Shown piece by piece: positions 1,231 to 31,526 of a stretch of 64,000 nt of DNA (position 1 is its first letter; each line of letters opens with the position of its first letter). The notes under the pieces are model-generated. The model was not told the origin of the DNA. It worked only from the letters and a program-made list of their open reading frames with translations, and ran no database searches. Source of the DNA: Sacculina carcini (lineage: Eukaryota; Arthropoda; Thecostraca; Sacculinidae); the NCBI GenBank assembly GCA_916048095.2, contig OU696591.1, positions 5,611,499 through 5,675,498 on the forward strand, given 5' to 3'. The position numbers and the translations under genes are program-made.

Positions 1231-1263
<33 letters not shown>

Positions 1264-2450: not shown

Positions 2451-2488
<38 letters not shown>

Positions 2489-4037
2489 GACTGACCGGTG
2501 AGCGGGTCGAAGGAGGTGATCTCGTTCATCAGCTGCGTGGAGAGAATGATCTCGTCGAACACGGGCACACCACTGCCCACCACGGCCGTATTGCCAGCCT
2601 GTGGACACACGGCTAGATGACGCTGGTGACAGTGTCGCATAATGGCCGACACTTCGGCAGTGCTACGAGGACGCAACAACACACGACTCTCTCCTACACA
2701 CACACACATATTACATTACATTACATTACATTAAGACATTTGTATCGCGCTTTTCACCCGAGGGTCTCAAAAGCGCTCACACACACACAAGCACAAGAGT
2801 CATACACATACACAATCACGAACACACACACTCACCTACATACACACACCCATACACACACACACACAAAACAGACAAGTACATATACGCACAAACACAA
2901 ACATACACTCACGTTTACATACTCAAAAACACAAAAATACACACGCACACACACATACATATTGAATAAGATAGCACAGCAGACATACAGCACAGAAGAC
3001 AACACAAAATACAACACATTAAGACAACACAGCAGGCATACAACGACATACACTCAGATTGACAAATCACAACACAATAGACACACAAATACAAACCAGA
3101 AAACACAACATAACAGACACACAAAAACATACACTCAAACAAATAGACAGATAACACAACACAACAGACACACAAACACAGATAACAACACACATACTGT
3201 AAACCTTCAGTTCAGGGGTTCTTGATTGTTGTAGATTATGTCTAATTATGTAACTATGTATTATATTTTTGCTGATAAACGTAGTTTTGCCTGATCGTTT
3301 TTAAATGAGTTGTATGAATGAATATTGAATAAAAAAGTTTTGTTATTACGCCGTTTGTATTTATAAATTTTCACTGCAACACTGACAAAGGCACATTGGC
3401 AGAATAATGGAAAAATAATGCGGCACCATGCGCTTTTGTGTACATGTAAGCGTATTTGTTTGTTTGTGTGTGTGTGTGTGTGTATGTGAGTAAGATTAAT
3501 CAAATTAATAAGACTGAAAATAAATTAAAAGTAATATATTAATCTATTAACAAATACTCAATTATAGCCAAATACAAATTACGGATAGAATGAATTTCGC
3601 TAAATTTGGCAACACCGACTCGCCTCGACAGTAGCGCCACCAGTCGGTGTTGTGAGTTGCCAGTTGGTCGGCGGCCGTAATGACGCGGTTGTCGTCGAGA
3701 ATGGCGCGGAAAGTTGCCAGATCGTCTTCGAGAACTTGTGAAAAATGGCCACGCTGCACCGGGTACTGTAGTCGCGTGAGCTGTACCTGGCAACCCTCAT
3801 TGCTACTGTTGTTGCCAGCTTGGTTCTGTGACACACACATACACATACATACACACACACACATACACACACACACACATACATACACACACACACATTC
3901 ATTTCATTTATTGAACATTATATAATGCGCCTTTACAATAGTTTCACAAATTCTCAAAAGCGCCACACACACACACACACACACACTTATATACCTACAT
4001 GCACACACACACATACAAATGCATGTCCATATGCAAG

Positions 4038-7029: not shown

Positions 7030-8183
7030 TAAGCCACATGCACGTTTGTGTGTGTGTGTGGTGGACAGAGTATGACGGTTCTGCACTGTACTCTCCCTAC
7101 CCGGGTCTGTACCCGGGCCAGACAGATGCCGAATACCAGCAAGTCAACTGTGTTTCGGTCGACGGCGGCAGTCGATACGGCGTTTCTGCAGTGGCGTTCG
7201 ACCCTCGCGAGGAACTGCTGTGGACCGGCAACCAGGGGGTGAGCTTGCCCCTCCCCATTTCTGTTCTTCCCCCTATTTCACGCTACCCTCTCTAAATTTC
7301 AATCGCCCTTGTAGTAAAATATTTATGTCTTTCTATAATATACTTTTGTTTGTTTTTCCATCTGTAATTTTTAAAATGCAACATATTAAGCTGTGTTGTT
7401 CGTTTCTCTACGTGAAATATAATTTAATATAATTTAAGATAATTTAATATCATGTAAGATAATTGAAGGTAATTGAACATAATTTAACATAACTCAAGAT
7501 AATTTAATATAATTTAAGATAATTTAAGATAATTCAAGATAATGTATGGTAATTTAAGATAATTCAAGATAATTTAAGAAAATTTAAGATCATTTAAGAT
7601 AATTTAAGATATCTCTCAAACGGTAATGTCGATTTTTGCTCACGTTATCAGCATAACATGCTCACGCATCTATAAACAGAACATCCTCGTTGACTTTATA
7701 TGCTGAAAAGCGACTTGGAAAATTTTTTCAATTATACTTTTCCAGTGGTTATACTCATTTTCATGTTTATAAAAGCTCATAACAGTAGTTTTAGTTGCTT
7801 ATAATAAATTTAAATAATTAAATAATTAATGTATACTACGTTTATCAAAAGAATAGTTTATCACATTTATTTAAAAGCTCTTGCTGTTTTCTGCTTTCCA
7901 CTTGTATTTTCTGTGTGTGTGTCGTGGTACAGGGCCACGTGACGTCATACTACTCACAGCGACTGCAAAAGTACACGTCATTTGCGGCGCACGCAGTTGG
8001 CAACGAGGCGCGCCATCTTTGTCTACTGGACCAGCTGGTGCTAACTCTGTCTCACAACCAACTGAGAGCGCATATCAGACGTGGACTACCGCGACTCTCC
8101 TACAAGTAGCAAACTCTCTCTCTCCCTCTCCCTTCCTCTCTCGCTCTCTCTCGCTCTCACACACATAGACACACGGACACTCA

Positions 8184-8227
<44 letters not shown>

Positions 8228-11200: not shown

Positions 11201-13710
11201 GTGTACTCACCTAGTTGGGTTACAGGATATGAGCTATGCTAGGACTGTCCTGTCTTTCTTCCAATATTTGTCTAGTTTTTTCTTTAAACAGCGATAAACT
11301 ATTGACTTCTACAATCGTCTTGTGTAAACTGTTCCATTCATTCACACAGCGGAACGGAAAGCTATATTTCTTTATGTCTTTTCTACATCTCGTTTTTCTT
11401 AATATTCTGTTATGGCCTCGTCCTCGTTGGTTTTGCTGCACTAGTCCAATTTCTTTCGAATCCAGTATTCCTGTCATCAATCTGTAGAAGAATCTGTATG
11501 TGTGTGTGTGTGTATGTTAGTTGGACGTTGGCGAGACTGGGTGTGTGTTGATGCGAGCTCACACGCGGCACATTTGCTGCGGTGACACACGAGGGCGGGT
11601 GACACTGCGCGACCCAACCTCACTGCGAGCCGTTCACTCTCTTGACACACATTCTGCCAGTGTCAATGACCTCGATGTTCACAACAATCTGTTGGTCACC
11701 TGTGGCTTCTCACACAGGTCCTTCACGCTCTATCTCTGCTTCATCGGCGGCGCCAGTCTGTGTCCTTAACCCATCAATATTGACTGACAACTTTACTTGC
11801 CACACACACACAAAATATTGAATTTAGCAAAGAAATAACAATGGAATTGTAATTGAAGGCGTTTTATATTGTTGAAACAAGTATTGAACGCGTACAGAAT
11901 GCGTTCTCGACGCTATGCTGCGTCACATGAATAAATAAGGAAATAAATCGATAAATTATTATAATGTAAATTAGAATTTCATTTGTCATCGAGTAATTAT
12001 TGGAATTAATGGGTTAATCGATCAATTAATCCATATCTATATATATAAAAGAGATCCTCTGTGTGTCTGTGTGTCCCACCCTCCTTGGTCCAGTTTCTAT
12101 CGGCTACTACTCGGTAACCACTTGGTGTACCGGCTAACAATTTATACCATTCCGTTGGAAATGTTCTTGTCTACATGATAGGCTAAATTTAAAATTGTAA
12201 AAATATAACCAAAAAAGTTATAGCGGTGAAAAGACAAAATGAACCCTGAAAAATGCGAAAATTTTGGTCAATATTCTGCCATCGAGTTCTCCTTAACCAG
12301 AAACGGTACAACAATACAGATTATACCACTGTGTAGAGAATGTTCTGTTCTACAAGATAGGCTATAATTCATATCTAAAATTATTTATATGAAAAGCCCG
12401 TAAAAGCACCGGTTTCTCATTCGTGCATTATATTCAATCAAGCATTTCATATACAGCGAATAAAACCCAGTAGAACGTTGTCATTATTGCAAAAACATGA
12501 CAGGCATAACTGGTGGAAAAAACGATCAAGGGATCATTCTTAAGGAATGCGAGGATTTCTGTGAAGAATTGCAAATGTGTTATATTTTTCCCTGAGAAAA
12601 AAAAACAGTCTTTTTTGTCAAACAAACTTCAAGCTGTATGAATTAATATTGAATACAAAAAGTTGTAGTATTAGGCTGTTTGTATTTTTAGCTTTTTTCA
12701 TCATAGCTGTCCAGAATCCAGGGGAGTGTGTGTGTGTGTGTGTGTGTGCGTGTGTGTGTGTGTCTCTGTATCTGTGTCTTTTTCTGTGTGCGTGTGTGTG
12801 TGTTTGTGTGTGTGTGTGGCTGTGTTTGTATCTGTGTCTCTGTGTCTGTGTGTGTGTGTACGTGTACGTATGTATGTGTACGTATGTATGTGTGTTGTTT
12901 GTATCTGTGTCTGTCTGTGTGTGTGTCTGTATCTTTTTCTGTGTGCGTGCGTGTGTTTGTGTGTGTGTGGCTATGTTTGTATCTGTGTCTCTGTCTCTGT
13001 GTGTGTATATATATATCAGAGCTGGCGAGGCTGCGGTAGACCGGCATCTGATGGTGTTTGACTTGCGCGTTCTGCGCGCCATCTCCACGACCGCCGTGCT
13101 AATCGACCCGTTTCTGCTGAAATTCATCCCAGCAATGTCCAGTCGCCTGGCCGTCATCTCGCCGCTCGGGCAACTGCAGATTGTTGAGACAGCTCAGCTC
13201 ATCCAGCCCACGCTGTCTTTATACACGGTATACCTCAGTTATTTCTCGCTTAAATCAACGGTGTAGATTAGTGTGTCGAGGCTCGGGGGGATGACAGCCA
13301 TCATGCATTATTGTGTTCAAAGTTGACTCAGTTTGGGTCAATTGCATGAGATCCTCAACTATTTTATGCCTAGTCAATTACAACACATACATATCTCAAT
13401 GAAAAGTATATTGCATATAATTGCACACACACACACACACTTGTCGTGTATTGTTACTTTTTTGCTACGATGATTTTGATGACCCAATATACCCAAATGA
13501 ACTGAACCCAGCAGAATTATCGGGGGGTATAATTGCTTATTCATACCCCCTAGACAATTTGTTTGGGGGTATGGGGGTATATATACCCCCATACCCCCCA
13601 GGATCTACGTCCATGGCTGAAATCACACTGTTTTTCATGTTTCGTTGCTTCACGTGTGTGTGTTTGTAGGTATGTGTGTGCATATATATGTGTATGTGTG
13701 TGCATGTGTA

Positions 13711-13783
<73 letters not shown>

Positions 13784-16700
13784 ATTGCTCTGTATATATC
13801 AATTAATCTGCGTTTTCCATTGACTATATGTGGGTGGGTGTTTGTTTTGTGTGTGTGTGCTTGTGTGTATATATATGTGTTTGTGTGTGTGTATTTATGT
13901 GTGTATTTGTGTGTTTTTGTGTTTATTGTTCTGTATATATCAATTCATCTGCGTTTTCCATTGACGATATGTGTGTGTGTAAGTAAGTAAGTAAGTAAGT
14001 AAGCTGGCCTTTATTGCGCTCCACAAAGGCTTTTCAGCACAATAAGCTACTCTACAAAAAAAATAATAGATCAATAAAATAAAGTAAATAAAATGGAAAA
14101 AACGGCAGATACGGTGACAGATTCAGGTTAAACATGTAGCCTAGTTATGTGTGAAAAAACATGACAACAATATGTTTGTGTGTTGACGATTGGAAAAAGC
14201 GAGCAGGTGTGTGGAATGTGTGTGTGTGTGTTTGTGTGTCGTTTTGTGGGCAGGTGGAGACGGGCGGAAGTCAGATATCATCGCTCGACATCTCGTCCAA
14301 CTCTCAGGCGATCGCCGTCGGTGATCTATCGGGAGCGCTACATCTGCTCTCACATTCCAACAATCAACAACAACAACAAGGATCCTTTAATAGCTTCTCA
14401 CGAGAAACTGGTGCGTGTGTTTGTGTTTTGTCATGTCTATTCCTGCCTTTCTATCGATATATTATATTGTCATGTATTTGCTCTCCATTGAATTTGTAAA
14501 AGCTTGTATTTAGAACACTAATAAGAGGAGAATGAAATTATACACGCACGTTTCAACACACAATTAATTATCAATCACTGATAACTTCCTATCTCTATCA
14601 TATCTCCAACATAATTCCGTTAAATTCAAATCTCAGCACTAACTTCAAAGCCAACACGAAATATACTAACATTAATTTCACGTGATAAATATTTTCTCGA
14701 TACACCAGACATCAATTTATAATTACAGAATTCCATTCAGTTAAACTTATAGGTGTATGTCTACATACTTGGGTGAATTTTATTAGCCCAAGTAAATTAC
14801 ATCTAATCACAAATATTCCGACAATGGTTGTTCTTTTGTATTAATTGATTCCTTATATCTGGTGAATTAATGGTATGCATGTTGGTTTCGTTGGAAAAAT
14901 GTATCGGTAGATTTTCGCTATATGATATATCCGTACTGCCAAAATTTATCTTTAGATCGAAAATCAAGTATCTATCTATCTACCTATCTGTCTATCTATC
15001 TATCTATCTATCTATAATCTATATAATATAATTCACTTTTTGGCATATATTATTTCAGATGCGTTTTTATATCTGTCTTAGCTTCATACATACTTATTTG
15101 TGTGTCTATATGTGTATGTATGTATGTTTGTGTGTAGAGTTTGCCGACGTGGTAGATCCTGTGCCGTTTATGTCTTATTCCGACGTTCATGCGCCACTGT
15201 CTGCCGTACCTGCGCCAGTTAGCGCTCATACCAGCCGTTTGTCGTGTTGGTGGCGTGGTCTGGATAATGCCGCTTACAGGTGGCTTATCTCCATATATCT
15301 GATATGCGTATTGTAGCTATTTTATTATATCATTTTTGTATCATTTCTTATTAGTTCCTCCTTGTTTTTATTACTAATTCAATAATATTTCACTATATAT
15401 TCTATTTATGTCAACGATTTTTTTCCGCGATATTAATATTTTCAAATATTCTTGATGTAGACGATCGGAGGGTGTTGATGCGAGCATTCTCAGCTCGATG
15501 AAAATGGTTGGCAACATTGGCTACGCCCCACACCCTGGCAACCGGCTGCCAAATCAGGTGAACACACTCGAGGGCAGGGGGGCAAATGGGGGTTTACTGT
15601 GAATTTCCAACATTGTTTTATTTTATAAATAATTTGTGCGTTTGTGTGTCAAATGTATCTATTTATCAATGAATTTAGTATTAAATATTGTATATAATTG
15701 TTTGAAATTTATTTATAATTGTGTTTATTATTTTTATTTATATATATTTGTGTGTGAGTGGCAGATAACATTTACGTGCGCCGGAATGGCCTACACGCCG
15801 GCCAGTGCGCACAAATCGTCGCCGTTGTCTGCTCTGTCTTGTTCATCAACTTCCTCTCTGCCTGCCGGCTCTCTCCTCCCATCCTCTGCCTGCTCTTCAT
15901 CCTCCGGCTCCTCTGCTCTTTCTGGCGGCGGTGGCGGTGGTGTGAGACGAGATGTGCGTGTCAATGGCGACGCAAGTGCGGCAATTGTGGCGCACGTGCC
16001 GCCGCGTTATCGTCGCCACGACAGCGCCGTGTCTGTGTCACTGTACTCGCGCGCAGAGGCGGTGCCAGGCCAGGCTGCAGGGGAGGCACAGTCGAGCAGC
16101 AGAGGCGCCGCAGGACCCTCGGGGCTAGAGAATATCCTGCCGAATTCCTACTGTAATGTAATGCTTCAGGTAAAGTGTTTACGTGTTGGACTGCGTGGTG
16201 CAGTTGTTAGCACACCCGCCTCACAAGCGGGAGATCCGTGGTTCGAAACCCGGCGGAGCAGAATTTCTTTGGGCGAATTCTATAATCCAACAGCCCCTGT
16301 CCACCCAGCAGTAAATGATGGTACCAGATATCAGTCATGTGTTGTGTCATGCATTCTGGGGAGGTGTTCCTCTCTAATACGTCTTACGTCCTTGTGGTGT
16401 CATAGCGTGGAGAAGGTTGGTTCTGTGGTGGTAGCGAGCTGCACGGGGCACACCTGTGTGTGTTCATAAGCTTCGACTTCTTCCCGTGTAGCAGCTGTCA
16501 CTTAGGCATTTAACCTTTAACTTTTAAGAATTTCCCATACCCAATGTTTCTCCGCCGTGTTGTTGCTAATATTTATTTGATTTTAAATAGTCAATTATTA
16601 TTGCAGTGCTTATCACTTTGTGGCGAATTTTCGTGGCTAATATTTCGTTCATCACTGTTTACATGGTATATTTCCCTATGGCATTGCTAGCTATGAAGTG

Positions 16701-17739
16701 ATCTGTTTATTATAAAAAACATGTCATTGCTTCTTACAACTTGTACTCTGCGTTTCTTCTCAGGTTCTGCTGTATTGCAAGCCACTGCGTGACGTATTGA
16801 AGGGTCATCTGTGTGAGAGAGAGTTCTGTTTGGCGTGTGAACTGCGCTTTCTCTTCCATATGATCTCCAGATCGGCCGGCCTTCCGTGTCAGGTTAATTG
16901 GGTTCAGTTAGAAAATGTACAAGCGCTAAAAGGTATAAGGTAGGTTAGAGCTAAGGTTTGAAGTTTGTGTTAAAATTAGAAATTAAGCATTGAATTTGGA
17001 AGATATATTTGCAAGCTTAAGTTATGATATAAATTCATACTTAGAAGAAGAGTTGTAAAGTAGTTAGAAAGTAAATTATTTCAGATTCCTGCTGGTCTGT
17101 GCAAGAACCCATTTCGATAAGTAAGCTACACACATATAATATATTTAACCAGTTTCCCTGATTATAGATGTATATATTACGAATTATAGATTATTTCCAT
17201 GTTTTCATGTACCTTTTTTGGTTAATTTTTCTCCCACATTTCTCATGTTGAATTTGTGGTGTTTTTGAATCTCCTTCATTAACGTTTTTCTCGCAAATAA
17301 TTCGTAACTGGCTTTTATGCGTCACGTTCGCCCATGTTTATCGTTTGTTTAGGCGAGTAATTTTTTGCGAGCTTTTCGCACGATTCCCGAGGCGACCGCT
17401 CTTGGTCTCATTTTGTCCGACACTTCTGTTAGTCGCCACAAAATCGACCTGCCTCGACTCATACAGGTGTGTTTTGTTCTGATTTCGTGACACAGGTGTC
17501 TAAAGTAAAGTAAAGTAAATATATTTGCCACTCATCATAACATATACACAATAAAGAAAGATAAAGCAATATATGTGGCGCATGTCCATTAAGCCGAAGC
17601 TCTTGATGGACATTTAGGATCAATATATAGATACATGAACAATTATACACACACAACACATACACGAACACTTATACACTTATACATACATACATTCATG
17701 TTTGCATACATCAGTGATTCATCTTCATCAATGTGATGG

Positions 17740-17784
<45 letters not shown>

Positions 17785-17785
17785 T

Positions 17786-17819
<34 letters not shown>

Positions 17820-20800: not shown

Positions 20801-23698
20801 ACCTATATTACAAGGTGCTAAATCACCTATATTACAAGGTACTAAATCACCTATATTACAAGGTACTAAATCACCTATATTACAAGGTACTAAATAACCT
20901 ATATTACAAGGTACTAAATCACCTATATTACAAGGTACTAAATAACCTATATTACAAGGTGCTAAATCACCTATATTACAAGGTACTAAATTACCTATAT
21001 TACAAGGTACTAAATAACCTATATTACAAGGTACTAAATCACCTATATTACAAGGTACTAAATCACCTATATTACAAGGTACTAAATCACCTATGTTACA
21101 AGGTGCTAAATCGCCTATATTACAAGGTACTAAATCACCTATATTACAAGGTACTAAATCACCTATGTTACAAGGTACTAAATCACCTATATTACAAGGT
21201 ACTAAATCACCTATATTACAAGGTACTAAATCACCTATATTACAAGGTACTGAATCACCTATATTACCAGGTGCTAAATCGCCTATATTACAAGGTACTA
21301 AATCACCTATATTACAAGGTACTAAATCACCTATATTACAAGGTACTAAATCACCTATATTACAAGGTACTAAATCACCTATATTACAAGGTACTAAATC
21401 ACCTATATTACAAGGTACCAAATCACCTATATTACAAGGTACTAAATCACCTATATTACAGGGTGCTAAATCACCTATATTACAACGTACAAAATCACCT
21501 ATATTACAAGGTACTAAATCACCTATATTACAAGGTACTAAATCACCTATATTACAAGGTACTATATCACCTATATTACAAGGTACTAAATCACCTATAT
21601 TACAAGGTACTAAATCACCTATATTACAAGGTACTAAATCACCTATATTACAAGGTACTGAATCACCTATATTACCAGGTGCTAAATCGCCTATATTACA
21701 AGGTACTAAATCACCTATATTACAAGGTACTAAATCACCTATATTACAAGGTAATAAATCACCTATATTACAAGGTAATAAATCACCTATATTACAAGGT
21801 AATAAATCACCTATATTACAAGGTACTAAATCACCTATATTACAAGGTGCTAAATCACCTATGTTACAAGGTGCTAAATCGCCTATATTACAAGGTGCTA
21901 AAACGCCTATATTACAAGGTGCTAAATCGCCTATATTACAAGATACTAAATCACCCATATTACAAGGTGCTAAATCGCCTATATTACAAGGTACTAAATC
22001 ACCTATATTACAAGGTACTAAATCACCTATATTACAAGGTACTAAATCACCTATATTACAAGGTACAAAATCACCTATATTACAAGGTACTAAATCACCT
22101 ATATTACAAGGTACTAAATCACCTATATTACAAGGTACTAAATCACCTATATTACAAGGTACTAAATCACCTATATTACCAGGTGCTAAATCGCCTATAT
22201 TACAAGATACTAAATCACCTATATTACCAGGTGCTAAATCGCCTATATTACAAGATACTAAATCACCCATATTACAAGGTGCTAAATCGCCTATATTACA
22301 AGGTACTAAATCACCTATATTACAAGGTACTAAATCACCTATATTACAAGGTAATAAATCACCTATATTACAAGGTATTAAATCACCTATATTACAAGGT
22401 ACTAAATCACCTATATTACAAGGTACTAAATCACCTATATTACAAGGTACTAAATCACCTATATTACAAGGTACTAAATAACCTATATTACAAGGTGCTA
22501 AATCGCCTATATTACAAGGTGCTAAATCGCCTATATTACAAGATACTAAATCACCCATATTACAAGGTGCTAAATCGCCTATATTACGAGGTACTAAATC
22601 ACCTATATTACAAGGTACTAAATCACCTATATTACAAGGTACCAAATCACCTATATTACAAGGTACTAAATCACCTATATTACAGGGTGCTAAATCACCT
22701 ATATTACAACGTACAAAATCACCTATATTACAAGGTACTAAATCACCTATATTACAAGGTACTAAATCACCTATATTACAAGGTACTAAATCACCTATAT
22801 TACAAGGTACTAAATCACCTATATTACCAGGTGCTAAATCACCTATATTACCAGGTGCTAAAGCACCCATATTACAAGGTGCTAAATCGCCTATATTACA
22901 AGGTACTAAATCACCTATATTACAAGGTACTAAATCACCTATATTACCAGGTACTAAATCACCTATATTACCAGGTGCTAAATCACCTATATTACAAGGT
23001 ACTAAATCACCTATATGTCTATGTGTGTGTGTGTCTGTGTGTGTGTACAGGAGGTGCAGTTTTGGAGTGTACAACAGAGACTTTTATCCCCGAGCAACTC
23101 CTCTGCCATCACAGCTGCCATCATAGACCCCACCATCATATCATCACAAACACGCCTTGTTGGAGGCCAGGCGAGCCGACCTTGTCGCTACGGCGCCACG
23201 TGTGCCCGACCTGACTGTCGCTTCTGGCATGATAACAGTGCCAGGGGCGGTGTCAGTGGTGGAGCTAGCTCTCCCGGCGTCGCGCACAAAACAGGTACGC
23301 TCATGATTTGCGTCATACATACTCACTGACTGCGCTCTCTCAGACACACACACACACACACACGCTGATTAATATGCTTAGGCATAGAATGAGTATGTAA
23401 AAGTTCGATAGAAATAATTGTATAGTTTGGGATAATTCAGGCAAGAGGGGTCATGGAAAAACTGAAAAGAACTAGATGTTTGAGAGATGTTAAGAAGTAT
23501 AGTTTCCCATATACAGGTGTGTTGATGTCTGGAATCAGTTAGAGGAGAATATTCTAGGAGCTAAAAGCGTAGGAGCATTTAAAGAAAGACCGGATATTGT
23601 GAAATACTGGGAATCTCAAGGAAGATAGGTTACTAGAGGGTGGGTTGGAGACAGGACAGCACGAGCATAGCTCATCTCCTGTGCTAAACAAATAACTG

Positions 23699-23733
<35 letters not shown>

Positions 23734-23814
23734 TACATTACATTTACATTATGGAAAAATTTATATAGCGCCCTACACCTAGAAGGTCTCTAAGGCGCTA
23801 CACACACACACACA

Positions 23815-23855
<41 letters not shown>

Positions 23856-24084
23856 ACACACACTGGCACAGCGCGATATACTCTCTCTCTCTCTCCCAAC
23901 TGCCCTTTCGACGACCTTTATATAACATCTGTGTCACGTGACACAATTAGGTCACGTGACTACGCACAAACAGCAAGGCAATACTGCGCATACATAACAC
24001 TTGAACGCACATGTGAGTGTGTGAGATGTCACGTGATACTGGGTCATACTCAAACGATAATATAGGCACAAGTTGAAGTGTACA

Positions 24085-24177
<93 letters not shown>

Positions 24178-26612
24178 GTAAAAATGTGAAGGAAATATAT
24201 CCGTGTTTATGTTAGCTCAAGTACGGACTTAATACTAGAAGAAAATCACACAAATTCATCACACAAAAAGACGGATTTTCATCATTGGCTTAATGAATAC
24301 AAATAAAAAATACAATAAATTATACACGAATATACTCTGTGTGATATCCCAGTGAAAATTCTATTGAATTTTAGCATATATCATATTATGAGTATGTTAA
24401 TATTTTAATATGCTATTTGATGATATTCTAGTGGAATATTTTCCCCTACTCTTGGCTGTTGCTCTTGGCTGACGATTTCAAGAGATTTTAGGCTCGGACT
24501 GTCCAGTCTCGATATCCAAATTTGTCCAGATTTGTCTTGAATGTGCCAATCTTTTCACCATCCACTACTTCTTCCCTTTATTCATTCCATTTGTCCACGC
24601 ATATATATGGGAAACTAAACTGTTTCAAATTACTGCGGCACCTAGCTTTTTTCAGTTTTCTCTTGTGTCCTCTTCTTTGTCCACTGGATTGTGCATAACT
24701 CGATAAAAACTGTTCCGTTTCGTCCATTTGCCGACATCTACTTGAAGACTGCTATCATGTCCCCTCATTCTTGCCTTTTTTCCAATGTAACCAGTGCCAA
24801 TTTCTCCAATCTTTCTCCATATGATAACTGTGTGTGTGTGTGTGTCAGTGGTTGTGGGGGGAGTTAGTTGGTTACCGTCCAGTATAACATGTTGTCGCTA
24901 CGCCGACGGCTCGGTGACGTCCACGCGCTCTGACCTCGCCAGCGAAGCAGCCGATAATATAGATGATGCTGAAAACACCAAGGTATTTACGTTAGAACCG
25001 GGGATGCGTGCTTTGTTCCTAAGGAATGCGGGTATTCCTGTGGTAAATCAAACAACACATATGTTTTAACTGTGCTTCATATTTTTTCCAGGAGATATAC
25101 TCAAGCGAAACTTAAGGGAAGTATGTTGTATTAATGAATATTTAATACTATTTTTTATTACTTCGTTAGTTTTGTCATTTCATTTAGCTGTCAAGAATCC
25201 AGGTTGCTTATTTGGTGCGAACATTGAGAAAGTTTAGTAGCCGCCGCGTTAGAAAAAGATAAATATCATGTAAAATCCCTATTTGAATACAATCTACACG
25301 TCTAATACAATTTCACTTTGGTAAATTATTCTCCTCTTTTGACAATATCTATGACCAACTGATTTTCGTTGGTGAATTTGTGATTAATTAACAATAATCA
25401 CATTATATTTGTGTTTTTATATTCGATTTTGACATCTTTCTCTCATCATACGCTCTCGTTTTCCCTACTAAACTCGTATTTCTAAAATATTTATCCATGC
25501 GTCTTTTAGTTAGCTTCCAGTACACATGGGGGGTCACCGCACAGGGTGGTAATAGTGCACTTGCACTCTTTCCCCATGCTACTGGATTTGTTTGTAATTA
25601 ATAATTAATAATAATAATAAACAAACAGGATATTAACGTATACGTAACGTATTGTTGTTATTATTAATAATAATAATAATTACTTTATATGACAGAATGG
25701 TGACGTACTGGAGCGTCGCGTGTACGATTTGTTCGCCGTCGTGTGTCACATATTCGACGCGCGACACCCAGACAAAAACAACCTCACCGTGGCGATAAAA
25801 TCACCGCTAGGGGGCACCACCAGCAGCGACTCATGGACGCTCTTCAATGACGTCACAGTTGTACCGATCTCGGCCCACGAAGTGCTCAATATGAGTCTTC
25901 ACTGGAAGGTCAGCGAGCGCCAATCGTAGAGCAGTAAATTTAGGAGATATACAAATATAAATAATAATTCATTTGTGTTCTACCAAAGTTTTACGTATGT
26001 GTGTGTGTGTGAAGAAAGAAAGAAAGAAACGTGTATTGGTGCTCAGACTGTTAGTATGGAGCGCTGCTCCAATTCACAACACATAATAAACTATATACAT
26101 CGCAAATATATACACAATATCAATATAAAACAGTATTAGTTTGAAAATTCGTGTGTGTGTGTGTGTGAGAGAGAGAGTGTGTATTTATTATATAAAATAA
26201 TTTATATTAAATATACAAATACTTGCGATTAATAAAAAACAAATACTATTTCATTGACGTGTGTCTGTGTGTGAATGTGTATGTGTGTGTGTGTGTGTGT
26301 ACGTACTTGTATGCGTGTGTGTGTTAATGTGTGTATGTGTGTGTCTGTAGGTGCCAGTCATTCTATACTTTCAGAGTCGTGATGTGTCCAGTGTGTCAAT
26401 GACCCCGCCATCTTGTGACGTCATCGCCGCCGCCGCCGCCGGTGATGACGTCACTCGCACAGACACTGAATATCTGCTCTCATTGCTGACGTCACAGCGC
26501 CCGCCGCTCGATAGTGCTGCAAATAGTGCTGGAAATAGTGCTGGTATTTCAGATACTCGCGCGGTGGTTTTCAAACCTCTATCCACCAGCGAGTTGCCAC
26601 AGAAAGGTGCGC

Positions 26613-26647
<35 letters not shown>

Positions 26648-26772
26648 AGTGTGTGTGTGTGTGTCAGTGTGTGTGTGTGTGTGTGTGTGTCAGTGTGTGT
26701 GCTTGTGTGTGTGTGTGTGTGTGTGTGTTTGCGTGTGTGTGTTTGTGTCAGTGTGTCAGTTTGTGTGTGTAT

Positions 26773-26805
<33 letters not shown>

Positions 26806-29191
26806 AGTGTGTATCAGTGTGTGTCAGTGTGTGTGTGTGTGTCAGTGTGTGCTTGTATGTGTGTCAGTGTGTCTTGAATTTGTTCCACATATTTCAGACT
26901 AAATTTGCTAAAAATATGTTATTATAATTATAATAGATTGAATTGAAATTGGCAGAGAGCGTTGAACGCTTATATATTACATGACTTCAATCTCCATGCA
27001 TCTTGATCATCAACACACACACACACACACACTCACACACACACAGAGAGAACCAATAGCATTAGAAAATCATTACATACAGCCGAAATGAAGTAAGATG
27101 AATGAGCGGAAACAGAACTTCCTCACACAATAATAGCCAATCTACAGCAACGATGATTGAATCAATAATAATAATGTTGCATCTAATGTTGCAATATATA
27201 ATGTTGCAGCCGTTCAGTTGCAGTTACAGTTGTTTTCTTTTGCAGCGACGATCAGACGCCAGATGGGAGAATTCAATTTTAGGATACACAAAGACTGGAG
27301 CATTCAAAATAGGTTTTAGCAAAAAAAACTTTCTTCCAAAAAAGGGTGCCAAGTCTTATTGAGCCCTTACAAAAATCATGAATATGTACATTACGAGTTT
27401 AGTTGCTTATGTTTCGCCAGGCCCCATATTGGAAAACATCCTGATGTCGCCTCTGGTGTGTAATATATGCTGAATATATTTACTGTTATCAACCCCTGAG
27501 TGTGGTGCTTGTGAATCAGGCGAGCTGGTGGCGATGGACGCCGAGTTTGTCACGCTCAATCAAGAGGAAGCCGAGATTCGTAGCGACGGTACCAGATCCA
27601 TGGTGAAACCGTGTCACATGGCTCTGGCGAGAATGTCTTGTGTGCGCGGGTGAGCAAGTTCTAACCCACAAGTGTTACTTATTGCATTTTATCTCCCCGT
27701 ATCTCTTTATGTTTCAGTGGTGTCATTCTGGCTTTTGGTGGTAACTTTTTTTTAAAGTAGTATTATGATTTAGTATGTTATACTCTTATGAAACTAATGC
27801 TACTACATTCATGTTTATATTTATACGTCCAGTTGGAAATAAATACATTTATCTTCACCACCCCTGAATCCCTTTCTCCATCTGTTTCTCTACCATCTTT
27901 CTGTCTGTTCTCTTATTTTTTCTTTTTATTTCTGTGCCTTATTCGGGACACATCTTTGCCCCTCCCTTTGTACATAGAAGATACAGGCATATTTATATAA
28001 ATAATTTAAAAAAGGAGCAATTAATATTGAAAATAATTATAATTGGTATAATAATATGGTCAAATAAATATCATTACTTAGAAATGCATAAGAAAATGGA
28101 AAAAATGTATAAAGTTATAATTAATATACAATATTAAAAGTTTGAGTTGTATTATTTTTGTGGGCATTTATGGACGGGTTGTTTGTGAGTGCAGACAGGG
28201 CGAGTTGGAGGGTGTGGCATTCATCGACGACTACATTTCAACCCAGGAACAAGTGGTCGACTATCTCACTCAGTTTTCCGGCATTAGGCCGGGCGATCTT
28301 GACGCCAGTGTTTCGTCCAAGCGACTCACCACACTCAAGTCCTGCTACCTCAAACTCTACTGTCTGGTCGAGGCCGGCGTCCTCTTTGTCGGACACGGAC
28401 TGAAAAACGACTTTCGGTTACTTACACACATACACACACACTCACTCACAAACATACACACACATATACACGCTCTCACATAAACATACACACTTTCACA
28501 CAAACATATATACACACACACTCTCACACACATACACACACACACTCTCTCACACACACATACACACACGCTCACTCACAAACATACACACACACACACA
28601 CATTATCTCACAAACATACACACTTTCACACAAACATATATACACACACACTCTCATACAAACATACACACACATATACACACTCTCACACAAATATACA
28701 TACACACTCACAAACATACACGCACACTCTCACACAAACATACATACACACTCACAAACATACACACACACACACTCACACTCACAAACATACACACACT
28801 CTCACACAAACATACACACACACTCACACAAACATACACACTTTCACACACTCTCACACAAACATACATATACTCTCACACACACTCACACATATACCCG
28901 TAAAAATTCATCCTTAAAACTGCATATAAAATGAAAAAGCCATATATAAATTTAAAAAAAACATACACAGAGATTTTTATGTTCACAGTCGTACAAACGA
29001 AATGACATACGGACATACATACGCACATGTATATCACTACAAACGTGATTACATACACAAATATACATTCAGCCTATATACTCGTTGGTAAATCAGTTTT
29101 ATTTAGTTTTATTCAGTTGAATATTTTCATAACTGTGTCTAGCAGTTTTTATTTGGATAGTTCTCACAGATTTGCTGGTATTGCATCTGTG

Positions 29192-29267
<76 letters not shown>

Positions 29268-31526
29268 TGTGTGTGTGTGTGTGTGTAGTAGAGTATTGGG
29301 ATATGTTGCAATCTCCCAAATAATGTTGCACTTTTCATTACAAGATGTGTTTGTGTGATAAAAATTGAACGAGATATAGATAAGATATAGATCAGTGGTT
29401 CTTAACCTGTGTGTGGGGAATTCCCCTGTCTGGTGGGAAATGGAAGAGTTGTCAAGTGGGAAGCTAAAGGTCGTACAGAACAGGACAACTATGTGTGTTT
29501 TTATCAATTGAAATTAGTTTAGTTTTGTTTCTATAATGACCTCTAATGACATTGACTTTGATGTAACAACTGAATTTATCAGCGCTGTGTTGTGTGGAAA
29601 ATGAAGAGATGGCTCGTTAAGAAGAAGTGTGCAATAAGTGAGAAAAAAGGTTGAGAACCACTGAAATATGCAAAACACAAAAGGGCAATACAATTGTCAG
29701 TGGCGGATCCAGAGTGAATTTTGGGGGGGGGGGGGCTGGAAATGTTCTCAATGATATTTGCGCACATTTACAAACGCATTATGCGCGAATATGCTCATAT
29801 CAACAAACTCTACAAATATATTATTTTTCTTGACCACTTTTAGTGAATCTGTTAGTTATGAGTAGTTGATGGAAACATTGTTTTTTTGGGGGCGCTTCAT
29901 CCCCCGAGCTTCCCCTCTCTGGGTCCGCCAATGACTCAAGCAAAATCCAAGCGGTGTGTATGTATATGTTTATGTATGTGTGTGTGTGTAGGGTGATTAA
30001 CCTGTATGTACCGTCGGAGCAGGTGATCGACACGGTCACCTTGTTTCAGCTGCCACAACAGAGAATGCTGTCGCTCAGGTTTCTAGCCTGGTATTTTCTC
30101 AGTGAGTGGTGCACACGCCTGTGTCTCTATGTGTTTGTGGGTTTTTATGCGTGTGTGTGTGTGTTTTATGTACGTGTGCTTGTGTGTGTGTACTCACTCA
30201 CTAGTTGTTGTGTACAGGAGATGAGCAAGGCTCAGACTGTGCTGTCTCCAAAAACCCACTATTGTCTAATCTACGCTTAAATTGTCCAATACTACTTGAT
30301 TCCACTACATACTTTTCAAGACTATTCCAAACGTCGATACACCTATTTGGGAAACTATATTTCTTTATATCCCTGTAACTACTCTGGTCTGCCTAAGGCA
30401 TTTATTGTGTCCCCTTCGATCTCTCTCACTCCAAACTGTGTGTGTGTGTGTGTATTTGTGAGTGCGTATGCTTATATAGGTATATACACGTGTATATGTG
30501 TCTATATTTCTGTTTATTTTTATATATATTTATATATACCTGTGTCTCTATGTTTGTGGGTTTGTATGCATGTGTGTGTGTGTGTGTATTTGAATGTATG
30601 TGTGTGTGTCTTTGTGTCTATATTTCTGTATATTTCTCTCGTATATATATATATATATATATATATACTTACCTGTGTATGAATATTTGTGTATATATCT
30701 GTATGTGTGTATGTATATTTGTTTGTATGTGTATATATATTTGTCTGTATGTGTGTGTATATATTTGTCTGTATGTGTGTGTATATATTTGTTTGTTTGT
30801 ATGTATAAATGTGTGTATATATTTGTTTGTATGTGTGTGTATATATTTGTTTGTATGTGTGTATACATTTGTCTGTATGTGTGTGTATATATTTGTCTGT
30901 ATGTGTGTGTATATATTTGTCTGTGTGTGTGTGTATATATATTTGTTTGTATGTGTGTGTGTGTATATATTTGTTTGTATGTGTGTGTATATATTTGTTT
31001 GTATGTATGTGTGTATATATTTGTTTGTATGTGTGTGTATATATTTGTTTGTATGTGTGTGTATACGTTTGTTTGTTTATATGTGTGTGTATATATTTGT
31101 TTGTATGTATGTGTATATGTGTATATATTTGTTTGTATGTGTGTGTGTATATATTTGTTTGTATATATGTGTGTGTATATATTTGTTTGTATGTGTGTGT
31201 ATATATTTGTTTGTATGTATGTATGTGTGTATATATTTGTTTGTATGTATGTATGTGTGTATATATTTGTTTGTTTGTATGTGTGTATATATTTCTTTGT
31301 ATGTGTGTGTGTATATATTTGTTTGTTTGTTTGTTTGTATGTGTGTGTAGAGTTGGACATACAGTCGGAGGCGCATGACTCAATAGAGGACGCGCGCACC
31401 GCTCTCTCACTCTACCGTCACTACGAAACAGTGCGCGCGCAGGGCGACGATGCTCTCACACTCTGTCTGCGCCAGATGTACGAGTGCGCCGCCCGACACG
31501 GTTGGCAACCGCCACCACGTCAATAA
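6256..31526 (+). CDS. PAN2: PAN2 gene, complete (23 coding exons)
   Basis: PAN2 is the catalytic subunit of the PAN2-PAN3 deadenylase that trims mRNA poly(A) tails in the cytoplasm. The exons sum to 4110 bp (1369 codons plus TAA) and all 22 junctions agree in phase. Domain order: N-terminal WD40 propeller (about 25-400), PAN3-binding linker (about 405-560, with a Ser/Gly-rich insertion), ubiquitin-hydrolase-like domain (about 570-1080) and DEDDh exonuclease (about 1158-1330). The catalytic set is intact: D1164 and E1166 in [11 protein letters not shown]1273 in [10 protein letters not shown]1320 and D1325 in [10 protein letters not shown]. Human PAN2 is about 1200 residues; the extra length is mostly low-complexity linker and an inserted CCCH zinc finger near 920-935. 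Coding exons are GC-rich while introns are repeat-rich. Confidence 0.96.
6458..6632 (-). mobile_element. Second type of tRNA-derived SINE
   Basis: On the minus strand: GAGTAGCTTAGGCGCTGAAC and B box GGTTCGAATCC. Its body is unlike the other SINEs. Confidence 0.55.
6947..7027. repeat. (TA)n microsatellite, about 81 bp
   Basis: Perfect TA run 41 bp before the PAN2 exon 2 acceptor. Confidence 0.98.
7069..7238 (+). CDS. PAN2: PAN2 exon 2
   Basis: Encodes [19 protein letters not shown] and [14 protein letters not shown], the start of the WD40 propeller ('FD..EE.LW.G..G'). Acceptor GTGGACAG, donor GTGAGC, phase 0. Confidence 0.93.
7424..7612 (+). repeat. 10-11-bp AATTTAAGAT repeat in PAN2 intron 2
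   Basis: About 18 degenerate copies of ATAATTTAAG. Confidence 0.9.
7933..8105 (+). CDS. PAN2: PAN2 exon 3
   Basis: Encodes [17 protein letters not shown] and on to [10 protein letters not shown]. The donor GTAGCA sits inside the last Lys codon (phase 2) and joins exon 4 exactly. Confidence 0.93.
8158..8250 (+). repeat. (CA)n tract near the PAN2 exon 3 donor
   Basis: CA repeats begin about 50 bp after the donor, following a CT-rich stretch. Confidence 0.95.
9346..10515 (-). mobile_element. Non-LTR retrotransposon, 3' part with RT C-terminal region
   Basis: The minus ORF 9997-10515 contains [56 protein letters not shown] and [17 protein letters not shown], the typical C-terminal region after the reverse transcriptase of CR1/jockey-type LINEs. 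A long TG-rich 3' UTR follows, then GCGCTTTTGAGACC...GCGCGATATAAATGTC and an (ATGTA)n tail at 9346-9366. 5' truncated. Confidence 0.75.
10727..10850 (+). CDS. PAN2: PAN2 exon 4
   Basis: Encodes [20 protein letters not shown], then [11 protein letters not shown], a WD40 blade. The acceptor follows a long TG tract. Donor GTCAGT, phase 0. Confidence 0.93.
11205..11495 (-). mobile_element. LINE C-terminal fragment in PAN2 intron 4
   Basis: Minus ORF 11220-11480 has [20 protein letters not shown] and [20 protein letters not shown], the end of a CR1-like ORF2. It abuts the exon 5 acceptor. Confidence 0.7.
11521..11717 (+). CDS. PAN2: PAN2 exon 5
   Basis: Encodes [17 protein letters not shown] and [18 protein letters not shown], which match the WD40 segment ending 'DFDVHGNLLAACGFSSR' in the family. 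Donor GTCCTT is weak but the phase (2) fits. Confidence 0.94.
12036..12400 (+). mobile_element. Helitron-like 5' fragment in PAN2 intron 5
   Basis: Begins A|TCTATATATATAAAAGAG at 12036 and runs parallel to the start of the element at 52935 (GGTAACCACTTGGTGTACC, GTTATAGCGGTGAAAAGACA). No 3' terminus recognised. Confidence 0.55.
12726..13008 (+). repeat. (TG)n tract before the PAN2 exon 6 acceptor
   Basis: About 280 bp of TG repeat with TATCTG and TACG interruptions, ending about 10 bp before the exon. Confidence 0.95.
13020..13227 (+). CDS. PAN2: PAN2 exon 6
   Basis: Encodes [20 protein letters not shown] and [18 protein letters not shown], a WD40 blade. The acceptor TATCAG follows a TATA run and a 280-bp TG tract. 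Phase 0 end. Confidence 0.95.
13262..13625 (+). repeat. Dispersed repeat with G-rich palindrome, copy 1
   Basis: Starts TAGATTAGTGTGTCGAGGCT, ends AGGATCTACGTCCATG. Contains a perfect 34-bp palindrome of G5/C5 blocks at 13565-13598. Confidence 0.8.
13978..14110 (-). mobile_element. LINE 3' end with (TTAC)n tail
   Basis: (GTAA)6 at 13979-14003 then CTGGCCTTTATTGCGCTCC and AGGCTTTTCAGCACAATAA. A related sequence is at 9219-9280. Confidence 0.5.
14254..14410 (+). CDS. PAN2: PAN2 exon 7
   Basis: Encodes [20 protein letters not shown] and NPYSRET-like SFNSFSRET, with a small NNQQQQQ expansion. Donor GTGCGT, phase 1. Confidence 0.94.
15138..15279 (+). CDS. PAN2: PAN2 exon 8
   Basis: Encodes [17 protein letters not shown] and [13 protein letters not shown], the end of the propeller. 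Acceptor GTGTAG, phase 2 end. Confidence 0.9.
15461..15557 (+). CDS. PAN2: PAN2 exon 9 (linker)
   Basis: Encodes [20 protein letters not shown], then [12 protein letters not shown], the conserved 'VGFIGYAPNP' linker that contacts PAN3. Acceptor GATGTAG, donor GTGAAC, phase 0. Confidence 0.94.
15765..16169 (+). CDS. PAN2: PAN2 exon 10 (low-complexity linker)
   Basis: Encodes [12 protein letters not shown], a Ser/Gly-rich stretch with a six-glycine run, [13 protein letters not shown], and [15 protein letters not shown], where the ubiquitin-hydrolase-like domain begins. At 135 codons it is the largest exon and the most lineage-specific. Donor GTAAAG. Confidence 0.92.
16186..16504 (+). mobile_element. 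tRNA-derived SINE, copy 2 (best-preserved head)
   Basis: The head folds as a tRNA: TGGTGCAGTTGTTAGCAC (A box region), anticodon arm CCCGC-CTCACAA-GCGGG with anticodon CAC (Val), B box GGTTCGAAACC. Body of about 240 bp follows. Located in PAN2 intron 10, 17 bp after the donor. Confidence 0.88.
16764..16892 (+). CDS. PAN2: PAN2 exon 11
   Basis: Encodes [20 protein letters not shown] and [19 protein letters not shown], a highly conserved piece of the pseudo-hydrolase domain. Phase 0 at both ends. Confidence 0.96.
17353..17466 (+). CDS. PAN2: PAN2 exon 12
   Basis: Encodes [20 protein letters not shown] and KIDLPRLIQ, nearly identical to the family. Acceptor GTTTAG, donor GTGTGT, phase 0. Confidence 0.96.
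17495..17660 (-). mobile_element. LINE 3' end with (TAAAG)n tail
   Basis: AAAGTAAAGTAAAGTAAATA then TGGCGCATGTCCATTAAGCC in PAN2 intron 12. Confidence 0.4.
18489..18666 (+). CDS. PAN2: PAN2 exon 13
   Basis: Starts [16 protein letters not shown] (family 'RWNRFILTQL'), then a Gly/Ser/Thr-rich loop. The donor GTGAGA cuts after one base of a Ser codon, phase 1. Confidence 0.93.
18957..19060 (+). repeat. TTTTTGTATATC repeat in PAN2 intron 13
   Basis: About eight 11-12-bp units alternating TTTTTGTATA and TCTTTGTATA. Confidence 0.85.
19107..19373 (+). CDS. PAN2: PAN2 exon 14
   Basis: Carries the Cys-rich zinc-binding knuckle [19 protein letters not shown] and LLCNLVYPP. The insertion before the Cys cluster is lineage-specific. 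Donor GTCGGC is followed directly by about 430 bp of CA-rich repeat. Confidence 0.92.
19376..19815 (+). repeat. CACTAACACTCA-type repeat after the PAN2 exon 14 donor
   Basis: About 430 bp of CA-rich sequence with recurring ACTAACACTCAC words start at the 5' splice site of intron 14. Confidence 0.9.
20281..20345 (+). mobile_element. LINE 3' end, plus orientation
   Basis: GGGCGCTTTTGAGACCTTCG then AAGCGCGATATAAATGTC and an ATGTA tail; only the terminus is present, in PAN2 intron 14. Confidence 0.65.
20420..20622 (+). CDS. PAN2: PAN2 exon 15
   Basis: Encodes [20 protein letters not shown] and [15 protein letters not shown], matching 'QAWCDTCEKYQP' and 'LPDILVINCEVNS'. Donor GTGAGC opens into the 24-bp array. 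Confidence 0.95.
20638..23014 (+). repeat. 24-bp minisatellite array in PAN2 intron 15
   Basis: About 99 copies of a strict 24-bp unit with core ACAAGGTACTAAATCACC. Every unit keeps the 24-bp length, so several frames stay open for hundreds of codons. Variant units (GTGCTAAATCG, GTAATAAAT, CATATTACCAG) recur in blocks, showing segmental duplication within the array. It begins 15 bp after the exon 15 donor. Confidence 0.97.
23051..23294 (+). CDS. PAN2: PAN2 exon 16 (contains a CCCH zinc finger)
   Basis: Starts [14 protein letters not shown] (family 'EADFWRMQ'), then [17 protein letters not shown]. The latter fits C-x5-C-x4-C-x3-H at about residues 920, 926, 931 and 935, a Nab2/ZC3H14-type poly(A)-binding finger spacing. 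Human PAN2 has no such finger here. Phase 1 end. Confidence 0.9.
23385..23695 (+). mobile_element. LINE C-terminal fragment in PAN2 intron 16
   Basis: Decayed reading [20 protein letters not shown], homologous to 11205-11495 and 62430-62805. Confidence 0.6.
23700..24175 (+). repeat. CA microsatellites in PAN2 intron 16
   Basis: Three long (CA)n runs, around 23701-23730, 23802-23870 and 24090-24175. Confidence 0.93.
24465..24830 (-). mobile_element. LINE C-terminal fragment, second copy in intron 16
   Basis: Related to 62430-62805 (GACTGTCCAGTCTC, ATATGGGAAACTAAAC, CATGTCCCCTCATTC). Ends 20 bp before the exon 17 acceptor. Confidence 0.55.
24849..24982 (+). CDS. PAN2: PAN2 exon 17
   Basis: Encodes [20 protein letters not shown], matching the family's 'VWLPFSI', then an acidic stretch [10 protein letters not shown]. 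The acceptor follows a TG tract. Phase 0 end. Confidence 0.9.
25440..25625 (+). mobile_element. Retro-element 3' end with (TAA)n tail, copy 1
   Basis: GGTTAGCTTCCAGTACACAT-type core, GGTGGTAATAGTGCACTT, then (TAA)n. Also at 37030-37250, 38590-38830 and inverted at 53205-53400. Confidence 0.6.
25696..25908 (+). CDS. PAN2: PAN2 exon 18
   Basis: Encodes [34 protein letters not shown] and NMSLHWK, strongly conserved ('YDLMATVVHILD', 'WYLFNDFLIEPI'). Phase 0. Confidence 0.96.
26351..26606 (+). CDS. PAN2: PAN2 exon 19
   Basis: Encodes [11 protein letters not shown] (family 'VPAILYYVKR'), a five-alanine GCC repeat, a low-complexity NSAGNSAG stretch, and [10 protein letters not shown]. Phase 1 end. 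Confidence 0.93.
26610..26873 (+). repeat. TG repeat with CAG interruptions in PAN2 intron 19
   Basis: TGTGTCAGTGTG units start about 8 bp after the 5' splice site. Confidence 0.94.
27520..27649 (+). CDS. PAN2: PAN2 exon 20 (exonuclease motif I)
   Basis: Encodes [20 protein letters not shown] and [20 protein letters not shown]. Asp and Glu of DAEF are the first two DEDD metal ligands. Donor GTGAGC, phase 2. Confidence 0.97.
28195..28416 (+). CDS. PAN2: PAN2 exon 21 (exonuclease motif II)
   Basis: Encodes [40 protein letters not shown] and [12 protein letters not shown]. The Asp of NDF is the third metal ligand. Donor GTTACT runs into a CA-rich array. Confidence 0.97.
28425..28895 (+). repeat. 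CA-rich minisatellite after the PAN2 exon 21 donor
   Basis: Repeats of the type ACACTCTCACACAAACATAC start within 10 bp of the 5' splice site. Confidence 0.9.
29196..29287 (+). repeat. (TG)n microsatellite in PAN2 intron 21
   Basis: About 90 bp of nearly perfect TG. Confidence 0.96.
29393..29663. mobile_element. hAT-like MITE
   Basis: Termini CAGTGGTTCTTAACCT and AGGTTGAGAACCACTG. Confidence 0.7.
29698..29933. mobile_element. hAT-like element, CAGTGGCGGATCC ends
   Basis: CAGTGGCGGATCCAGAG at the left and CTCTGGGTCCGCCAATG at the right; a G13 run inside. Confidence 0.6.
29992..30101 (+). CDS. PAN2: PAN2 exon 22
   Basis: Encodes [20 protein letters not shown] and [12 protein letters not shown], conserved exonuclease core. 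A hAT-like element ends 58 bp upstream of the exon. Phase 1 end at GTGAGT. Confidence 0.96.
30190..30440 (-). mobile_element. LINE terminal fragment in PAN2 intron 22
   Basis: TACTCACTCACTAGTTGTTG then GTACAGGAGATGAGCAAGGC, homologous to 40320-40490. Confidence 0.6.
30690..31345 (+). repeat. PAN2: 24-28-bp TG/TATA minisatellite in PAN2 intron 22
   Basis: Repeats of GTATATATTTGTTTGTATGT fill the intron up to the exon 23 acceptor. Confidence 0.9.
31351..31526 (+). CDS. PAN2: PAN2 exon 23 (exonuclease motif III and stop)
   Basis: Encodes [20 protein letters not shown], with catalytic His and Asp, then a short C-terminal tail ending in PPPRQ and TAA at 31524-31526. Confidence 0.97.

What the first reader, a model, noticed from the sequence alone, without database searches (positions are those of the whole stretch)
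8106..29991. (AC)n after 5' splice sites and (GU)n before 3' splice sites: introns that may be held by AC-GU pairing
Seen directly: most acceptors in all four genes are preceded in the sense strand by TG repeats, not a normal polypyrimidine tract (PAN2 exons 4, 5, 6, 7, 8, 15, 16, 17, 19, 22, 23; D2HGDH exons 2-5; MOSPD2 exons 2, 3, 6; SNAPC2 exon 3). Several of the same introns carry AC repeats soon after the donor: PAN2 intron 3 (8158-8250 with 10650-10726), intron 14 (19376-19815 with 20217-20280), intron 16 (23341-23362 with 24829-24848), intron 21 (28425-28895 with 29960-29991), and D2HGDH intron 2. AC and GU repeats in one pre-mRNA can pair and bring the splice sites together. Such (AC)m-(GT)n introns are known from fish as a route around the polypyrimidine-tract/U2AF2 step. 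Here the pattern is in an apparent invertebrate and spans unrelated genes, so it may be a genome-wide splicing habit.
Basis: partly seen in the sequence, partly recalled or inferred. Interest (0 to 1): 0.85.

Follow-up and report, generated by a model that had tools for sequence, protein, structure and literature searches.

The report
UG tracts mark arthropod acceptor sites
In this arthropod genome most introns examined end in a UG-rich tract, often a short (UG)n repeat, where animals normally have a pyrimidine-rich tract; matching AC repeats at the other end of the intron are not clearly more common than chance, so the tract is probably read by a protein and not by RNA pairing.

Summary
With a spliced aligner blind to the tract I kept 53 well-supported introns (of 104 modelled) in 12 conserved genes on two contigs. 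In the last 40 nt a TG run of 8 nt or more occurs in 33 of 53 introns, an AC run in 1 of 53; random windows give 4.4% and 5.8%, decoy AGs inside the same introns 9.1% and 3.1%. A 15-nt window of at least 80% G/T is found in 43 of 53 acceptors (random 21%), a pyrimidine window in 8 of 53 (random 14%).

The pairing half is not supported. AC runs after donors: 7 of 53, TG runs 10 of 53 (random 9.9%, 7.6%). AC-5' and TG-3' co-occur in 8 introns, 7.3 expected (p=0.73). Own ends pair no better than swapped ends, but that test is weak. A slight AC lean remains near donors of long introns (P=0.035).

Best reading: single-stranded UG tracts read by a U2AF2/PUF60-type factor; each gene has two single-frame matches here. 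No transcripts were available, and generality beyond two contigs is untested.

The parts
7239..7932 (+). PAN2 intron, well supported; TG run 7912-7922 before the acceptor
8106..10726 (+). PAN2 intron with AC tract 8158-8239 after the donor and TG tract 10648-10717 before the acceptor (flank identity below my cut-off)
11499..11513 (+). TG tract before the acceptor of PAN2 intron 10851-11520 (flank identity below my cut-off)
11718..13019 (+). PAN2 intron, well supported; TG runs 12958-13006 before the acceptor, AC run 11801-11812
14217..14231 (+). TG tract before the acceptor of PAN2 intron 13228-14253 (flank identity below my cut-off); AC 13424-13440
17467..18488 (+). PAN2 intron, well supported; TG runs 18446-18468 before the acceptor, TG also near the donor
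23022..23046 (+). TG tract before the acceptor of PAN2 intron 20623-23050, the intron that also holds a 24-bp satellite (flank identity below my cut-off)
26282..26344 (+). TG tract before the acceptor of PAN2 intron 25909-26350 (right exon too short for my cut-off)
28417..29991 (+). PAN2 intron, well supported, the clearest AC...TG intron: AC runs from 28432, TG run 29977-29989
30102..31350 (+). PAN2 intron, well supported; TG at both ends (30151-30191 and 31302-31348)
15280..17352 (+). PAN2 stretch holding three well-supported introns without TG runs at the acceptor (15280-15460, 16170-16763, 16893-17352): counter-examples
26607..28194 (+). Two further well-supported PAN2 introns without a TG run at the acceptor (26607-27519, 27650-28194); the first has TG at the donor
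2689..3615 (-). D2HGDH intron, well supported; sense TG 2696-2708 at the acceptor, sense AC 3465-3483
1824..2495 (-). D2HGDH intron, well supported; sense TG 1841-1853 at the acceptor and TG near the donor
930..1629 (-). D2HGDH intron, well supported; sense TG 939-969 at the acceptor
36593..37263 (-). MOSPD2 intron, well supported; sense TG 36602-36613 at the acceptor

Best explanation
In this arthropod the 3' splice site is marked by a UG-rich tract, often a perfect (UG)4 to (UG)10 run ending about 10 nt before the intron end, in place of the usual polypyrimidine tract. Most likely the tract works single-stranded and is bound by an RRM protein of the U2AF2/PUF60 class that recruits U2 snRNP; it is not held by pairing with AC repeats at the donor. 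Shown: the tract, its position, its strand and the lack of pyrimidine enrichment. Inferred: function, reader protein, genome-wide validity.
For: 33 of 53 acceptors with a TG run of 8 nt or more in the last 40 nt, AC 1 of 53, random 4.4% and 5.8%; 80-nt window TG 35 of 53, P=2.6e-28 against 6.8%. TG coverage 0.31-0.33 in the last 40 nt against 0.10-0.15 in -200..-40 (42 introns). Same-intron controls: decoy AGs 9.1% TG (n=1379); 0 of 200 draws of interior windows reach the observed TG count. G/T windows 43 of 50 acceptors against 19.7 expected from interiors, pyrimidine windows 8 against 10.2. Holds outside the finding: 24 of 37 introns of other genes in the 40-nt window, and in a strict set 13 of 24 against AC 0 of 24. 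Only 6 of 35 tracts reach 24 nt. PUF60: poly(GU) competes better than poly(U), and TGTGT is bound better than T5 (PMC6093180, passages). Two single-frame U2AF2 matches (64% and 60% identity) and two PUF60 matches (51% and 54%) in this genome.
Against: 20 of 53 acceptors have no TG run in the last 40 nt (RAB10 0 of 3, PAN2 5 of 12 in 80 nt), although 9 of the 18 without a run in 80 nt still have a G/T window. No transcript, binding or knock-down data. Introns come from conserved genes on two contigs; the aligner allowed AG acceptors only and 51 of 104 models were dropped by quality, length or N filters. Among low-confidence predicted exons the polarity is weaker (TG only 22, AC only 6 of 131; 13 and 5 of 63; 6 and 2 of 33). 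Genome-wide counts anchored on CAGGTRAGT show only a slight TG lean (45 against control 27; AC 38 against 31), but 0 of 53 donors carry that word. The reader protein is a guess from literature and copy number.
Confidence: 0.6

Rival explanations
1. One reading: AC tracts after the donor pair with GU tracts before the acceptor and bring the splice sites together, as described for fish and lamprey.
For: Some introns have the right order (within 300 nt of the donor: 8 of 53; e.g. window 8106-10726 and 28417-29991, MFN2 157033-158224), and AC-donor by TG-acceptor duplexes are predicted to be strong (mean -54.7). Slight AC lean near donors of long introns (8 of 26, P=0.035) and in predicted exons (AC only 11, 9, 7 against TG only 8, 5, 2, none significant).
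Against: AC at donors 7 of 53 against TG 10 of 53; no association of AC-5' with TG-3' (p=0.73; 44-intron set p=0.72); own ends pair no better than swapped ends (-37.47 against -37.65, sd 1.57, P=0.53, 46 introns; the test is weak, since even full matching of the AC donors would move the mean only to -38.95); genome-wide AC after CAGGTRAGT 22 against control 16, TG 28 against 29.
Confidence: 0.1
2. No special reader: TG is the commonest U-containing microsatellite here; TG runs that arise at acceptors are kept because half the bases are U and no AG is created, while other sequences are removed. The ordinary U2AF tolerates the tract.
For: TG/AC runs are very common genome-wide while CT runs are rare (0.26% of 40-nt windows); sense-strand TG exceeds AC in intron interiors too (2873 against 1030 nt; 24 introns against 10, P=0.024). 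U2AF2 tolerates varied tracts (PMC10946897, passages).
Against: 14-fold enrichment over random windows and 6- to 7-fold over decoy AGs in the same introns is more than tolerance; ordinary pyrimidine windows are not enriched at all.
Confidence: 0.2
3. The tracts are regulatory: bound by TDP-43/CELF-type proteins, or folded into poly(UG) quadruplexes, to control exon inclusion.
For: UG repeats are known targets of such proteins (recalled); human pUGs of 12 or more repeats are enriched near splice sites (PMC12276007, passage).
Against: Tracts are present in most constitutive-looking introns of housekeeping genes; only 6 of 35 reach 24 nt, the length of one pUG fold.
Confidence: 0.07
4. Artefact of intron modelling without transcripts.
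For: Boundaries come from human-protein alignment; 51 of 104 models were dropped.
Against: The aligner scores only AG at the acceptor; the strict set keeps the effect (13 of 24 TG, 0 of 24 AC); AC and donor ends act as internal controls.
Confidence: 0.03

Closest known systems
(AC)m-(GU)n introns of fish and lamprey (Lin et al. [quoted passage not shown] paper not held; known here from a review passage in PMC7404189)
   Same: GU tract before the 3' splice site, in the sense strand
   Different: No clear AC enrichment at donors and no association between the two ends; G/T-rich acceptors are the majority here
Human UG-rich, PUF60-activated 3' splice sites (PMC6093180, passages)
   Same: UG-rich tract upstream of the acceptor; PUF60 prefers UG over U alone
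   Different: In human these are special exons with a bipartite UG then UC tract; here the UG tract lies next to the AG and pyrimidine windows are not enriched
Fritillaria borealis introns with duplicated U2AF (PMC13326754, passages)
   Same: A lineage with altered 3' signals and two U2AF2 copies
   Different: There U2AF1 is duplicated too and the terminal dinucleotides change; here one intron-bearing U2AF1 match set and AG was imposed by the aligner
Human poly(UG) repeats near splice sites (PMC12276007, passage)
   Same: pUG enriched near splice sites
   Different: Long repeats (12 or more) in a minority of human genes; here short tracts in most acceptors examined

Membership tests
(AC)m-(GU)n introns (fish, lamprey) | GU tract just before the 3' splice site | tested here: met
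   33 of 53 introns, random 4.4%
(AC)m-(GU)n introns (fish, lamprey) | AC tract after the 5' splice site, more than chance | tested here: inconclusive
   7 of 53, random 9.9%; same-intron control P=0.105 and P=0.035
(AC)m-(GU)n introns (fish, lamprey) | AC and GU in the same intron beyond independence, ends able to pair with each other | tested here: not met
   8 seen, 7.3 expected, p=0.73; own against swapped ends P=0.53, low power
(AC)m-(GU)n introns (fish, lamprey) | Splicing independent of U2AF2 | not testable with these tools
   needs knock-down; two U2AF2 matches are present
U2-type GT-AG introns with a polypyrimidine tract | Pyrimidine tract upstream of AG | tested here: not met
   pyrimidine window 8 of 53, random 13.7%; 8 of 50 against 10.2 expected from interiors
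U2-type GT-AG introns with a polypyrimidine tract | GT and AG termini | not tested
   the aligner required AG and the filter required GT
PUF60-type UG acceptors | UG tract bound by PUF60 | not testable with these tools
   two PUF60 matches exist; binding needs experiment
poly(UG) quadruplex (pUG fold) | 12 or more UG repeats | tested here: not met
   6 of 35 tracts have a run of 24 nt or more, so not met for most
Fritillaria-like altered U2AF system | U2AF1 and U2AF2 both duplicated | tested here: not met
   U2AF2 twice; U2AF1: one set of exon matches on C21 plus one 34% match on C18, probably the ZRSR2 class by recall

The most novel reading that the evidence does not exclude
This arthropod lineage has swapped the 3' splice signal of most of its introns from a U/C tract to a U/G tract, read by diverged paralogues of U2AF2 and/or PUF60, with the pyrimidine tract found after the 5' splice site instead.
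Probability: 0.35. Interest if true: 0.8.

Novelty: new variant of a known kind. Interest (0 to 1): 0.6.

Why it matters
The polypyrimidine tract and its reader U2AF2 are treated as near-universal in animals. A species in which acceptors carry UG tracts and show no pyrimidine enrichment would be a natural test of how far the 3' splice signal can move, which factor (U2AF2 or PUF60) reads it, and how microsatellites become splice signals. It also warns that gene finders trained on pyrimidine tracts may misplace exons in repeat-rich arthropod genomes.

Tried and rejected
Rejected: AC-GU pairing as the general mechanism. Ab initio gene finding for a larger set: the first version recovered few PAN2 exons; a retrained one recovered 44 of 49 known sites, partly trained on them, and its novel exons gave weaker polarity. 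Genome-wide word counts around CAGGTRAGT: little power, because 0 of 53 donors carry that word; counts of words after runs within 364 kb showed no usable polarity. Branch-point search: CTRAY motifs were few and unclustered. Decoy GTR donors were useless, since they lie inside TG runs. Chaetognath idea for the species: 257 Mb but 9 chromosomes (PMC12460157, passages); the Chitin_bind_4 count then showed an arthropod. Literature: ten paper searches listed no paper that I recognised as reporting UG tracts as the standard acceptor of an animal; passages read in PMC3033335, PMC7878876 and PMC6341167 did not mention it. Most subscription papers are not held.

Not explored: letters of the U2AF2 and PUF60 copies, other contigs, transcripts.

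Full report
What was checked. The window lies in a 264.4-Mb genome held as 43 contigs (G000:C29:5611499-5675498). The animal is an arthropod: 94 Chitin_bind_4 matches; the species is unknown.

Genes and introns. They placed PAN2, D2HGDH, MOSPD2, DYNC1LI1, MFN2, RAB10, PABPN1, AFG3L2, MED10 and ABT1 on C29 and RPL24, TM9SF4 and PRADC1 on C1. A spliced aligner that scores an acceptor by AG alone and a donor by a mild consensus gave 104 introns. I kept 53, in 12 genes, with at least 4 of 12 identical codons on each side, exons of at least 17 aligned codons, length of 120 nt or more, GT donor and no N near the ends. TM9SF4 gave none. The 51 dropped were not tallied as a set; of the 24 dropped in the window 10 have a TG run in the last 80 nt.

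Acceptors. In the last 40 nt a TG run of 8 nt or more occurs in 33 of 53 and an AC run in 1 of 53; random 40-nt windows give 4.4% and 5.8%. In 80 nt it is 35 and 5 of 53, random 6.8% and 8.8%. Coverage by TG runs is 0.31-0.33 in the last 40 nt and 0.10-0.15 further upstream (42 introns). Decoy AGs inside the same introns: TG 9.1%, AC 3.1% (n=1379). The median run ends 10 nt before the intron end and the median longest run is 13 nt (35 introns). Composition of -40..-4 is T 0.444, G 0.309, A 0.147, C 0.100, against interior T 0.363, G 0.194, A 0.277, C 0.166. A 15-nt window of at least 80% G/T occurs in 43 of 53, pyrimidine in 8 of 53; random 21.3% and 13.7%. Against interiors of the same introns: G/T 43 of 50 with 19.7 expected, pyrimidine 8 of 50 with 10.2 expected. 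So the pyrimidine tract is not merely interrupted by G; it is not enriched. Genes outside the window carry the signal more often (26 of 37 in 80 nt) than window genes (9 of 16); the two C1 genes give 4 of 5. Counter-examples: RAB10 0 of 3, PAN2 5 of 12.

Donors. AC runs in +7..+100: 7 of 53; TG runs: 10 of 53; random 9.9% and 7.6%. Against interiors of the same introns AC is 6 of 47 (P=0.105) at 94 nt, 8 of 26 (P=0.035) at 294 nt and 4 of 51 (P=0.24) at 40 nt; TG is not enriched. What is enriched after donors is a pyrimidine window: 17 of 50, 10.2 expected, no draw of 200 reaching it.

Pairing. AC within 300 nt of the donor and TG within 80 nt of the acceptor: 8, 3, 27, 15 (p=0.73). Predicted duplex of own ends -37.47 against swapped ends -37.65 (sd 1.57, P=0.53, 46 introns; an earlier run on 42 introns gave P=0.57 and P=0.68). 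This test is weak: if all ten AC donors faced TG acceptors the mean would be only -38.95. The association test and the donor counts are therefore the stronger evidence.

Wider checks. Low-confidence exons outside the probed genes: acceptors TG only 22, AC only 6 (131; P=0.004), 13 and 5 (63; P=0.10), 6 and 2 (33; P=0.29); donors TG only 8, AC only 11; 5 and 9; 2 and 7, none significant. Genome-wide words: unique sites per strand with TG after CAGGTRAGT 28 (control 29) and AC 22 (16); TG 100-130 nt before it 45 (27), AC 38 (31). That one orientation of these counts is unique per site is my reading of the listings. 0 of 53 donors carry the word, so these say little.

Mechanism. The tract lies where U2AF2 normally binds. 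Shown: sequence, place, strand. Inferred: that it acts single-stranded and that a U2AF2/PUF60-type protein reads it. PUF60 is a candidate because poly(GU) outcompetes poly(U) and it binds TGTGT better than T5 (PMC6093180, passages). U2AF2 has two single-frame matches 2 kb apart on opposite strands (C26, 64% and 60%), PUF60 two (C31 51% over residues 53-559; C16 54% over residues 48-399); U2AF1 has one set of exon matches (75%, 83%, 67%) and a distant relative. In the larvacean Fritillaria duplicated U2AF subunits accompany changed 3' ends (PMC13326754, passages). A Drosophila U2AF2 retrocopy (LS2) with G-rich binding is recalled only (paper not held). I could not read the copies here.

Verdict. 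Observation partly confirmed, pairing not supported, UG acceptors likely a habit of the genome. Closest known: fish and lamprey AC-GT introns (PMC7404189 passage), from which this differs at the 5' end. New variant of a known kind.

Noticed in passing
G000:C26:1032223-1033464 (-) and 1035399-1036658 (+): Two U2AF2 matches in single open frames (424 and 430 aa), 2 kb apart on opposite strands, 60% and 64% identical to human.
   Followed up: partly
G000:C31:185165-186610 and C16:7533173-7534222: Two PUF60 matches in single open frames, 51% and 54% identity.
   Followed up: no
53 introns, +7..+46: Pyrimidine windows are enriched after donors (17 of 50, 10.2 expected), the reverse of the usual arrangement.
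   Followed up: partly
53 introns, donors: Donors are degenerate: 0 of 53 carry CAGGTRAGT and 2 of 53 AGGTRAG.
   Followed up: no
intron interiors: Sense-strand TG exceeds AC (2873 against 1030 nt; 24 introns against 10 of 50, P=0.024).
   Followed up: partly
window 20638-23016: About 99 copies of a 24-bp satellite inside a PAN2 intron.
   Followed up: no
window 45726-49518 (-): Long open frames with high coding score in my model; the two stretches scanned (45800-47125, 47300-48764) had no Pfam match.
   Followed up: partly
window 16189-16260 (+), 32831-32889 (-), 63880-63939 (-): tRNA-like matches; the first lies in a PAN2 intron and looks like part of a dispersed repeat.
   Followed up: no
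G000:C7:1241414-1243426 and L023 near C1:3027300: Single-frame copies of multi-exon type genes: a myosin head and an amino-acid-transporter-like frame (named by eye).
   Followed up: no
G000:C30:335968-429085: Array of 20 nearly equal-scoring Chitin_bind_4 matches.
   Followed up: no
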